The notes under the pieces were generated by a model that saw nothing but the letters and a program-made list of their open reading frames with translations, did not search any database and was not told the DNA's origin. The translations under genes and the position numbers were made by a program. From positions 1 to 64,000 of the forward strand of contig NZ_AUAX01000007.1 of assembly GCF_000428945.1 (NCBI RefSeq): a stretch of DNA of 64,000 nucleotides. The letters are read 5' to 3'. Shown in pieces: positions 27,640 through 29,705 of the stretch (position 1 is the first letter of the stretch; each line of letters opens with the position of its first letter). This stretch comes from Hamadaea tsunoensis DSM 44101. Lineage in GTDB: Bacteria; Actinomycetota; Actinomycetes; Mycobacteriales; Micromonosporaceae.

Positions 27640-28039
27640 ATGACAACAACAGAGATCCTCGCCGACTGGCCGTCGCGGGTAGAGATTATGACGGGCCTGG
27701 CCAGCGATCAAGTCGACCGGCACGTGCGGACGTATATGCCGGCGGGGGCCTGGATCCGGCGCGTAGCCGTGCGGTCGGCGCGTACCGCGCGGTCCTGGTC
27801 GTGCTGCTAAAGCTGCGCCACAATGTGTCCCAGGCGCTGATTGCCGAGCTGTTCGGCTGTTCCCAGCCCACTGTCTCGCGGCTGATCGGCCGGATCATGC
27901 CGATCATCACCGCCGCGCTGACCCCGACTGCCGACGCCGCGGCCAAGCGGGACCTGCGCTCCATCGTGCGTGTCGACGGGTTTCTCGTCCCCCACGGGCA
28001 ACTGGCGCAAGAACACGTTCACCTCGGGCATGTACTCCG
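27640..28039 (+). pseudogene. IS5-family transposase, N-terminal part, interrupted by IS110-type element
   Basis: The frame opens MTTTEILADWPSRVEIMTGL, shifts near 27790, and continues YRAVLVVLLKLRHNVSQALIAELFGCSQPTVSRLIGRIMP, the helix-turn-helix of IS5/DDE_Tnp_4 transposases. A second shift near 27985 leads to PTGNWRKNTFTSGMYSG, where the IS110 element begins. The protein resumes as GIKRHACGFNIQVVGSW at 29346. The gene was already decaying or decayed after the insertion. Confidence 0.75.
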
Positions 28040-28265
28040 GTTGTGAAGATGGGCATGCCGTCGCGGGCACCGGTTTGACTCGTACTCTGGTTGGCCCTCG
28101 GTGCCTTGCGTTTGATCTGTCGACCGGGTCTCGCGACGGCGTGGTTGCCGCCGGACCAGTGCGTGTGTCCCGATAGGGGCTTTGCCTTGCGCGCCGTCAC
28201 AGTCCTGACCACTCTACTGGCCGAGGCGGCCGTTCTGATGCCGAGCAGCCAGGAGATTCGTAGCC
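28040..28265 (+). ncRNA. candidate bridge RNA region of the IS110 element
   Basis: In the IS110 group the left end upstream of the transposase encodes a bridge RNA with target- and donor-binding loops. Here GTACTCTGG (28082-28090) equals the left flank of the insertion, GTACTCCGG, apart from one U-G wobble; GCGTTTGAT (28108-28116) is complementary to the right flank ATCAAGCGC, apart from one G-U wobble. Further on, GATAGG (28172-28177) resembles the right element end CATAGG, and CGTCACAG (28195-28202) resembles the complement of the left end TTGTGAAG. Exact RNA ends are not visible. Confidence 0.65.
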
Positions 28266-29336
28266 GTGCCCGTAACCCGCAAGCCCCGCCGCCAGAGCGA
28301 TCAGGACATCGTTCTTGGAGTGGACACACACAAGGACGTCCATGTAGTAGTGGCATTGTCATCCCTCGGCGCCGTATTGGACAGCCGTGGCTTCCCGACG
28401 ACCGCTCGCGGATACGACGAGCTGCTCACCTGGGCGAGGTCCCTTGGCACGGTTCGTCGCGTCGGTGTCGAGGGCACCGGCTCGTACGGGGCGGCGCTGA
28501 CGCGTGCACTGCTCGCCGAAGGCGTCGACGTCATCGAGGTCAACTGTCCGGATCGGTCGACTCGGCGGCGCAAGGGCAAGAGCGACACCGTCGATGCCGA
28601 GGCTGCGGCACGCGCAGTCATCTCCGGATCCGCGACGGCCCTACCGAAGACCCTCAACGGCCCGGTTGAGGCGATGCGCGTACTCAAAGTCGCCAAGGAC
28701 TCGGCGACGAAAGCCCGCGTGCAGGCGGTCAACCAGCTCAAGTCTGTCATCGTCAGCGCCGATCCCGAGCTACGCGAGTCGCTGTCCGGGCTCAGTACCC
28801 GCCGGCTCGTCGCCCGGTGCGCCGAACTGGACGCCACAGATCACGACGGCGTCATGGCCGCAACACTGCATACCCTGCGCCAGCTCGCCCGACGCATCCA
28901 GTACCTGGCGAGCGAGATCCTGGACCTGCAAGCCCGCATCACCGTCGAGATCAAGGCGAGCACGCCTGCGCTACTGGAGGTCAGCGGCATCGGCCTCGAC
29001 TCGGCCGCGGCGTTACTCATAGCCGCCGGCGACAATCCTCATCGCCTCACCAGCGAGGCATCCTTTGCCGCAGTCTGTGGCGTCAGCCCCGTCGAAGCGT
29101 CCTCCGGCAAGACACAGCGCCTTCGACTCAATCGCGGCGGGAACCGAAGCGCCAACGCCGCCCTCTACCGAGCCGTGCTCACCCGACTGCGCTGGGATAC
29201 AGCAACCCAGGAGTACCTGCGTCGCCGTACCACCGAGGGCATGTCCAAGAGGGAAGTCATCCGCTGCTTGAAACGATATCTGGCCCGCACGATCTACAAG
29301 ATCATTATCGCAACGTCCACGCCTACAGCGACTTGA
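28266..29336 (+). CDS. IS110-family DEDD transposase (bridge RNA-guided recombinase type)
   Basis: 356 aa, normal length. The RuvC-like N-terminal domain has the catalytic acids in LGVDTHKDVHVV, VEGTGSYG and RKGKSDTVDAEAAARA. The C-terminal Tnp_IS116/IS110 domain (LLEVSGIGLDSAAALLIAAG) contains ASSGKTQRLRLNRGGNRSAN with the nucleophile Ser. All key residues are present and the frame is open, so the enzyme could be active. It lies inside the IS5-family gene. Confidence 0.9.
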   Translation: MPVTRKPRRQSDQDIVLGVDTHKDVHVVVALSSLGAVLDSRGFPTTARGYDELLTWARSLGTVRRVGVEGTGSYGAALTRALLAEGVDVIEVNCPDRSTRRRKGKSDTVDAEAAARAVISGSATALPKTLNGPVEAMRVLKVAKDSATKARVQAVNQLKSVIVSADPELRESLSGLSTRRLVARCAELDATDHDGVMAATLHTLRQLARRIQYLASEILDLQARITVEIKASTPALLEVSGIGLDSAAALLIAAGDNPHRLTSEASFAAVCGVSPVEASSGKTQRLRLNRGGNRSANAALYRAVLTRLRWDTATQEYLRRRTTEGMSKREVIRCLKRYLARTIYKIIIATSTPTAT

Positions 29337-29345
29337 CAACCATAG

Positions 29346-29705
29346 GGGCATCAAGCGCCACGCTTGCGGTTTCAACATCCAGGTCGTCGGCTCCTGGCAC
29401 GGCACCGCTGGTGTTGACCGGCAATCCGAGGCCCGGCTCAATGCACGACGCGAAAGCGTGGCGAGAGTCCGGTCTGGCGCAACGTTCGAAGGCCGCATGC
29501 ATGCTGACGGCGGACCAGGAGGTTTCGCCGACACCGCCTACACCGGCACCGGACTGTGCGTACCTGACCGCAAACCCCAAGGCCAGCCTCTGACCGAAAC
29601 GCCCGCGACCACAACCGCAAAATCGCTTCCCGCCGAGCCGGCGTCGAACGCGTCATCGCCCATCTGCAGAACTGGAAGCTCCTTGGGACCGCCGGCCGCG
29701 ATTGA
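29346..29705 (+). pseudogene. IS5-family transposase, C-terminal part
   Basis: This continues the gene split by the IS110 element: GIKRHACGFNIQVVGSW, then in shifted frames LVLTGNPRPGSMHDAKAWRES, GFADTAYTGTGLCVPDRKP and HNRKIASRRAGVERVIAHLQNWK, ending at a TGA. These are the second and third acidic boxes of the DDE domain. Frame changes near 29400, 29520 and 29600 show decay. It ends 33 bp before the histidine kinase start, so insertion may have replaced that operon's natural promoter. Confidence 0.75.

What the first reader, a model, noticed from the sequence alone, without database searches (positions are those of the whole stretch)
28040..29346. IS110 element whose candidate bridge RNA guides match its own insertion site
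The element is intact and inserted in an IS5-family transposase gene, so the original target can be read: GTACTCC-GG-CATCAAGCGC. In the non-coding left end, GTACTCTGG (28082-28090) is the left flank with one T/C change that a U-G wobble tolerates, and GCGTTTGAT (28108-28116) is the complement of the right flank with one G-U wobble. Both 9-nt matches lie within 35 bases of each other in the order expected for the target-binding loop of IS621-type bridge RNAs. Weaker matches to the element ends (28172-28177 and 28195-28202) could form the donor loop. This predicts that the element targets a conserved IS5-transposase sequence.
Basis: partly seen in the sequence, partly recalled or inferred. Interest (0 to 1): 0.9.

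Follow-up and report, generated by a model that had tools for sequence, protein, structure and literature searches.

The report
RNA-guided jumping gene targeting other transposons
This is an IS110-type jumping gene that very probably uses its own small RNA to find and insert into a conserved spot in another jumping gene's transposase, and many of its actinobacterial relatives carry guides aimed at other transposase families.

Summary
The core of the finding holds; its boundaries do not. 28042-29352 is an intact IS110-family element (PF01548 + PF02371) inside an IS5-type (DDE_Tnp_4) transposase gene. Its left end encodes a bridge-RNA-like structure. At 58 related insertion sites read with fixed anchors, two guide segments track the flanks: 8.0/9 left matches against 5.4 permuted (maximum 5.95 of 10,000), 5.2/6 right against 3.0. 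Both segments face each other in one covarying internal loop. Donor-guide and handshake positions covary too. Family view: 41 of 58 sites lie between codons of transposase motifs (IS5, IS3, IS630, IS256, TnpB types). One clade for the YSG-aimed elements is rejected (p-AU 2.2e-5). In one genome all four full IS5 copies found carry a relative at this site. The mechanism is that of IS621, and ISEc21 already targets IS3 transposase codons, so this is a new member; the breadth is the new part. No RNA or transposition was observed.

The parts
28042..29352 (+). IS110-family element, 1311 bp; insertion point between 28041 and 29353 of the host gene (1-nt ambiguity at the shared C/T)
   Evidence: right end kept at unrelated sites; left end TGTGA; uninterrupted IS5 relatives
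28266..29336 (+). DEDD/serine IS110 recombinase gene, 356 aa
   Evidence: PF01548 E=2.4e-22, PF02371 E=2.3e-17; aligns with IS621 8wt6 E=7.5e-11 and ISCro4 9t56 E=4e-10
28033..28041 (+). left target TACTCCGGT (codons Tyr-Ser-Gly of the IS5-type transposase)
29353..29358 (+). right target AAGCGC (codons Lys-Arg)
28056..28141 (+). bridge RNA target-binding stem-loop (stem 28056-28079 with 28119-28141, apical hairpin 28093-28105)
   Evidence: RNAalifold on 34 relatives; 17 of 24 pairs with two-sided changes, 94.2% of 806 cells paired, 0 of 500 shuffles; coordinates
28083..28091 (+). left target guide TACTCTGGT
   Evidence: 9/9 wobble-inclusive match to 28033-28041; covariation
28108..28113 (+). 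right target guide GCGTTT
   Evidence: 6/6 pairing with 29353-29358, one U-G; covariation
28114..28116 (+). GAT: core guide plus target-loop handshake guide, pairs with ATC 29350-29352 of the element's own right end
   Evidence: complementarity read from the sequence; GATC was part of the anchor, so its presence in 58 of 58 strict rows is by construction; role by analogy with IS621 (PMC11208158)
28173..28180 (+). left donor guide ATAGGGGC, identical to 29341-29348
   Evidence: right end and guide agree, GGGG-GGGG 55 and GGAG-GGAG 37, disagree in 2 of 94
28197..28201 (+). right donor guide TCACA, complement of TGTGA 28042-28046
   Evidence: alignment A3
28202..28204 (+). GTC: donor-loop core and handshake guide, pairs with the last bases of the left target
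   Evidence: the two bases after G pair in 102 of 104 cells at 52 sites, permuted mean 87.1, maximum 96 of 20,000
29333..29338 (+). [quoted passage not shown]
   Evidence: read from the sequence; function inferred from IS621/ISEc21, not tested
27740..28041 (+). left part of interrupted IS5-type transposase gene (decayed; stops in the frame tried upstream)
   Evidence: 72-78% DNA identity to uninterrupted relatives, two of which are DDE_Tnp_4; stops reported; frame open for only 40 codons before the insertion
29353..29705 (+). right part of the same IS5-type transposase gene
   Evidence: 75-85% identity to four other stretches of the same genome

Best explanation
28042-29352 is an IS110-group insertion sequence. 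Its recombinase is guided by a bridge RNA encoded in its own left end. Shown by sequence: the target loop carries a 9-nt left guide and a 6-nt right guide that match the sides of its insertion point, the donor segments match its own ends, and these matches covary across relatives. Inferred: the element excises as a circle; joining its ends builds a promoter (TTGACA-17-GAAGAT); the RNA is transcribed; and the recombinase-RNA complex inserts the circle at YSG^K codons of IS5-type transposase genes, without target duplication, by IS621-like strand exchange.
For: Recombinase family and homology to IS621/ISCro4. Guide-flank covariation with fixed anchors: 58 strict sites, left 8.0/9 against 5.4 permuted (max 5.95), right 5.17/6 against 3.0 (max 3.67); with one row per distinct left guide (n = 33, misread rows included) 7.42 against 4.86 and 5.09 against 2.99; an earlier set of 44 agrees. 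42 of 58 pass both thresholds, with 22 distinct left guides and 31 guide pairs. Structure. Donor guide: 92 of 94 rows agree. Handshake covariation: 0 of 20,000 permutations. Empty sites. Like-guided copies at different sites share the guide-matched bases. In genome G140, four identical copies of a 68%-identical relative sit at the same position in four slightly different IS5 copies, and no uninterrupted full copy was found.
Against: No transcript, circle or transposition was observed. 16 of the 58 strict sites miss at least one threshold (left 8/9 or right 5/6); six have left scores of 3/9 or less (L096, L139, L143, L112, L065, L067). L096 is a misplaced left end, since read the same locus as 10/10; the others may be misreadings or real exceptions. 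171 of 229 loci with a recombinase match gave no strict row (123 lacked an anchor, an end or a flank, 2 were the window itself, the rest were duplicates or another subgroup). The window RNA folded alone is not clearly more stable than its shuffles (z -0.89, 32 of 200 as stable), so structural support comes from the alignment, whose consensus also supplied the structure tested. The single-element match is only p about 0.001. The donor covariation is essentially two states (GGGG, GGAG) that may follow ancestry. This genome has one full copy, so activity is unknown.
Confidence: 0.93

Rival explanations
1. The guide-like matches are chance or reflect shared ancestry of flank and left end (for example a captured piece of the target), not RNA guidance.
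For: The match in this one element is only p about 0.001.
Against: Covariation far outside permutation, also with one row per left guide; two segments in opposite sense facing one loop; handshake covariation; IS621 and ISEc21 precedents (PMC11208160, PMC11208158, PMC11187229).
Confidence: 0.02
2. The element spreads mainly as a passenger of its host transposon, so repeated occurrence at one site reflects inheritance of a composite rather than repeated guided insertion.
For: In G140 and G745 the repeated unit is a host IS plus the IS110 (about 2.27 and 2.77 kb). The three G745 IS630 composites are nearly identical.
Against: In G140 the four host copies differ at 10 columns of about 919 inside the host IS (an eleventh counted lies just outside its end), while the IS110 is identical over 1345; if differences fell evenly the chance that all ten miss the IS110 is about 1e-4. 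Different lineages hit the same codons in different IS5 genes. Gene conversion could also homogenise the IS110.
Confidence: 0.2
3. Insertion into transposases is a by-product: such genes are merely abundant, repeated and dispensable, so insertions there survive.
For: Dispensable repeated targets are expected to be favoured; some copies lie outside recognised transposases where the guides happen to match (L144, L152). The background share of transposase genes was not measured.
Against: The guides themselves spell transposase codons: 41 of 58 sites at a codon boundary, with mismatches concentrated at third codon positions (55 of 205 cells against 25 of 410). This argues for guides shaped on these genes, though not for a benefit to the host.
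Confidence: 0.3

Closest known systems
IS621 (IS110 group, bridge RNA; Durrant et al. 2024, Hiraizumi et al. 2024)
   Same: Recombinase family; guide RNA in the left end; left/right target guides in one loop with donor guides downstream; AT handshake guide and donor AT-CT junction; [quoted passage not shown] a G-T wobble seen in the left guide
   Different: Target is a transposase gene rather than REP; right guide about 6 nt beyond the shared base (IS621: 4 bp including core); here only one base is shared between target and donor (C in 50, T in 6, A in 2 of 58 left sides, the anchor allowing A, C or T), not a CT dinucleotide
ISEc21 / ISMch6 (IS110 type, seekRNA; Siddiquee et al. 2024)
   Same: Upstream non-coding RNA region; the target is conserved codons of a transposase (around the second D of IS3-family DDE genes); natural redirection between relatives reported
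   Different: These relatives are mostly actinobacterial and their guides cover IS5, IS3, IS630, IS256, TnpB and other motifs; this element aims at the IS5 YSG-K motif. The relation of ISEc21's recombinase to these relatives was not tested here
IS4321 / IS5075 (IS1111 group)
   Same: Site-specific insertion into another transposon family
   Different: Target Tn21-family terminal inverted repeats, not transposase codons (title seen in the reference list of PMC11208160); RNA region at the right end in the IS1111 group

Membership tests
IS110 family, IS110 group | DEDD RuvC-like plus Tnp (serine) domains | tested here: met
   PF01548 and PF02371; the alignment to IS621 keeps D, E, D..D and an S-G pair in the region of the catalytic serine, read by eye (residues named)
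IS110 family, IS110 group | Long non-coding left end, short right end | tested here: met
   left end 224 nt (28042-28265), right end 16 nt after the stop codon (29337-29352)
IS110 family, IS110 group | No long subterminal inverted repeats (unlike IS1111) | not tested
   no dedicated search was made
IS110 family, IS110 group | Bridge RNA with target loop (left and right guides) complementary to the insertion site | tested here: met
   from sequence only
IS110 family, IS110 group | Donor loop complementary to the element's own ends | tested here: inconclusive
   complementarity met (for the left donor guide; TCACA/TGTGA read from alignment A3); the loop structure itself was not resolved
IS110 family, IS110 group | Common CT core dinucleotide in target and donor | tested here: not met
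   donor junction reads C-T, but targets share only the pyrimidine; other first core bases supported IS621 recombination, so I treat this as a variable rather than a defining feature
IS110 family, IS110 group | Circular intermediate with junction promoter; RNA bound by recombinase | not testable with these tools
   needs RNA-seq and junction PCR; only -35/-10-like boxes were read
Rfam RNA family | Match to a curated RNA family | tested here: not met
   0 matches at gathering threshold in the whole window

The most novel reading that the evidence does not exclude
A group of mainly actinobacterial IS110 elements is a specialised RNA-guided transposon hunter. Its bridge-RNA guides have been re-aimed many times, sometimes convergently, at conserved codons of unrelated transposases (IS5, IS3, IS630, IS256, TnpB). 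They match first and second codon positions and tolerate the third, and such an element can interrupt every full copy of a transposon in a genome.
Probability: 0.6. Interest if true: 0.7.

Novelty: new member of a known kind. Interest (0 to 1): 0.55.

Why it matters
The element gives a readable natural guide-target pair for an actinobacterial IS110 recombinase. Its relatives give 22 distinct left guides and 31 guide pairs with well-matched targets: a natural data set for the rules of bridge-RNA targeting (wobble, guide length, handshake bases, a core in which one base is shared). It also makes a question testable: how do guides change aim? On a tree of 42 recombinases the target label needs 13 changes (least possible 8; shuffled mean 27.4). 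If these elements routinely inactivate other transposons, they shape the mobile-element load of actinobacterial genomes.

Tried and rejected
Rejected: TGTGA/TCACA as an RNA helix (RNAalifold pairs columns 1-5 with 181-185); I read it as donor guide against donor end. Weak: guides favouring U/G wobble at third codon positions. By distinct guide-position pairs it is 16 wobble against 7 non-wobble transitions, p = 0.09, so it is not claimed; only the concentration of departures at third positions is. Withdrawn on checking: GATC as an invariant of 58 relatives (it was part of the anchor; without demanding it, a crude search found it in 45 of 79 loci of at least 56% identity). Misleading: the relaxed extraction mixes in a diverged subgroup (G279, G047, G283 and others) whose guide register was mis-assigned; those rows depress its means and the strict set drops them. 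The automatic choice of reading frame picked the frame I use, + strand with a codon boundary at the insertion, in only 25 of 58 sites, because GC-rich DNA has several open frames; I then read that one frame at all 58 and checked pieces with Pfam. Led nowhere: Rfam; plasmid searches with the host-gene flanks (none, and one 51-base match); paper search (0 papers). RNA-model building, structure prediction and small-RNA data were not used.

Full report
The observation. The window carries a recombinase ORF at 28266-29336 with both IS110-family domains (PF01548, E=2.4e-22; PF02371, E=2.3e-17). By sequence it matches the solved IS621 and ISCro4 recombinases. The own genome (9.48 Mb) holds one full copy and one partial 66% match over 189 bases.

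Boundaries. I gathered relatives by protein from named genomes (80 loci kept of 120 found), from 354 genomes of the same family (251 with a match), from a class sample (9 of 394 at E<=1e-105, the own genome among them) and from a further genus sample (54 of 392 at E<=1e-105), and fetched more copies. Of 108 deduplicated loci with TTGAC..ATAGG after the recombinase, 88 end in CATC, 9 in CGTC, 9 in CTTC and 2 otherwise, CATC not being demanded (listing). CATC at 29349-29352 is therefore part of the element, not of the target. Empty sites agree. A relative in the same genome reads GTACTCCGGCAAGCGC without CATC (85% identical over 168 bases of the right flank). Of 11 further uninterrupted relatives lined up none has CATC: nine read YSG-K, one FSG-K (L234), and one has an extra base after YSG (L243). 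The insertion is TACTCCGGT^AAGCGC, with no duplication and no loss.

Guides. In relatives the left end begins TGTGA. A segment between TGACYC and TGGC copies the left flank, and a segment before GATCTGTCGG is the reverse complement of the right flank. Boundaries and guides were then located by these fixed anchors, not by fitting to each other; the anchors themselves (TGTGA, GATC, C[ATG]TC) are thus conserved by construction in the rows kept. Of 229 loci with a recombinase match, 104 gave a full reading, 73 were distinct and 58 met the strict anchors. In those 58 the mean left match is 8.0 of 9 (permuted 5.4, maximum 5.95 in 10,000) and the mean right match 5.17 of 6 (permuted 3.0, maximum 3.67). 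With one row per distinct left guide (33 rows) it is 7.42 against 4.86 and 5.09 against 2.99. 42 of 58 pass both thresholds (8/9 and 5/6), with 22 distinct left guides. The 16 that do not include L096, L139, L143, L112, L065 and L067, with left scores of 3 or less; L096 is a misplaced left end (10/10). The relaxed set of 73 gives 7.45/9 against 5.14 and 4.52/6 against 2.59.

Structure. An alignment of 34 left ends folds into a long stem, an internal loop that holds the left guide on one side and the right guide on the other, and a closing GGC/GCC hairpin. On that stem and hairpin 94.2% of 806 cells pair and 17 of 24 pairs change on both sides. None of 500 shuffles reached any of the five measures, and slid partners fall to 35-54% paired; the structure came from the same alignment. 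The window sequence folded alone is unremarkable (z -0.89). The donor loop was not resolved as a structure.

Donor side and handshake. The segment ATAGGGGC (28173-28180) repeats the right end of the element (29341-29348). Where relatives have GGAG at the right end, the guide has GGAG too: 55 + 37 agreements and 2 disagreements among 94 readable rows; 80 loci without a readable right end, 48 duplicates and 5 without a guide were left out, and the two states may follow ancestry. TCACA (28197-28201) complements TGTGA at the left end. In IS621 two handshake guides pair with the other DNA after strand exchange (PMC11208158, passages read). The same is seen here. The two bases after TCACA-G covary with the left target: 102 of 104 cells in 52 sites, permuted mean 87.1, maximum 96 in 20,000; 6 sites had no readable motif. 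GAT after the right guide is complementary to ATC at the end of the element.

Targets. At 41 of the 58 strict sites the insertion lies exactly between codons of a transposase motif: YSG^KHKRHG and RYD^KLAVRYEAT (IS5 types), VWDN^LNTH and VCDN^YATH (IS630), C[WF]D^NAxAESFF (IS3), VCD^GLTGLPDAV (IS256), VREN^QTIVIEDL (TnpB) and others. Family names for the motifs are my reading. An automatic frame choice had picked this frame in only 25 of 58. Pfam at E<=0.01 supports 36 of the 41 individually through one flank piece (L019 just under the curated cut-off). The window site is supported through two uninterrupted relatives (DDE_Tnp_4), and four rest on the motif alone (L169, L145, L216, L031). The other 17 sites are outside recognised transposases or unreadable. 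They include copies of transposase-aimed elements at other genes where the guides match (L144, L152). Guide-target departures concentrate at third codon positions (55 of 205 cells against 25 of 410). A bias toward wobble-capable guide bases there is suggestive only (16 against 7, p=0.09).

Evolution. On a tree of 42 recombinases (three more had broken frames and were left out) the nine labels, one of them 'other', need 13 changes (least possible 8, shuffled mean 27.4). Holding the six YSG-aimed rows together as one clade is rejected (p-AU 2.2e-5; the labels were set before the tree, the test was chosen after seeing it). So this aim arose, or was exchanged, more than once. In genome G140 a 68%-identical relative is present in four identical copies, each in an IS5 copy at the same codons. 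The host copies vary at 10 of about 919 columns inside the host IS (11 of 922, one of them beyond its end), the IS110 at 0 of 1345. A genome search with 489 bases of that IS5 found four full matches, all beside the element, and four fragments of at most 110 bases. This suggests separate insertions into existing copies, though gene conversion is not excluded.

Mechanism and what is known. The best explanation is bridge-RNA-guided recombination as in IS621 (PMC11208160: abstract, passages and section 12; PMC11208158: passages). A junction promoter TTGACA (29333-29338)-17-GAAGAT (28045-28050) can be read but was not tested. Transposase codons as IS110 target are already known: ISEc21 inserts around the second D of IS3-type DDE genes (PMC11187229: abstract, introduction and the sections on ISEc21 and on many targets). 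What I did not find described, in open-licence PMC text searched (listings, with only the papers named above and passages of PMC12500396 opened), is a group aimed at so many transposase families with repeated re-aiming.

Limits. All evidence is from sequence. Related rows are not independent; I therefore also counted by distinct guide. The share of transposase genes in these genomes, the background for the 41 of 58, was not measured.

Noticed in passing
L122-L131 and similar loci (G279, G047, G283): A diverged IS110 subgroup (about 50-53% identical recombinase) with right end GGAGCATC and GC-rich, loosely alike targets (such as CCACC); its guide register differs from the window group and was not worked out.
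   Followed up: partly
   Followed up: partly
L259-L262 (G140): All four full copies found of one IS5 in a genome carry the same IS110 at the same codons; IS110 identical, host copies slightly different.
   Followed up: yes
L263, L264, L266, L265 (G745): Three IS630 copies carry a nearly identical IS110; a fourth copy of that IS110 sits at an unrelated site that shares the guide-matched bases. Whether the IS630 composite moved as a unit could not be decided.
   Followed up: partly
window 27640-28041 and 29353-29705: The host IS5-type gene is itself decayed (in-frame stops upstream, an apparent frame change downstream), so the target was or became a dead transposon.
   Followed up: partly
G000:C14:2085-2273 (L002): A second, partial IS110-like stretch in the same genome, 66% identical over 189 bases.
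   Followed up: no
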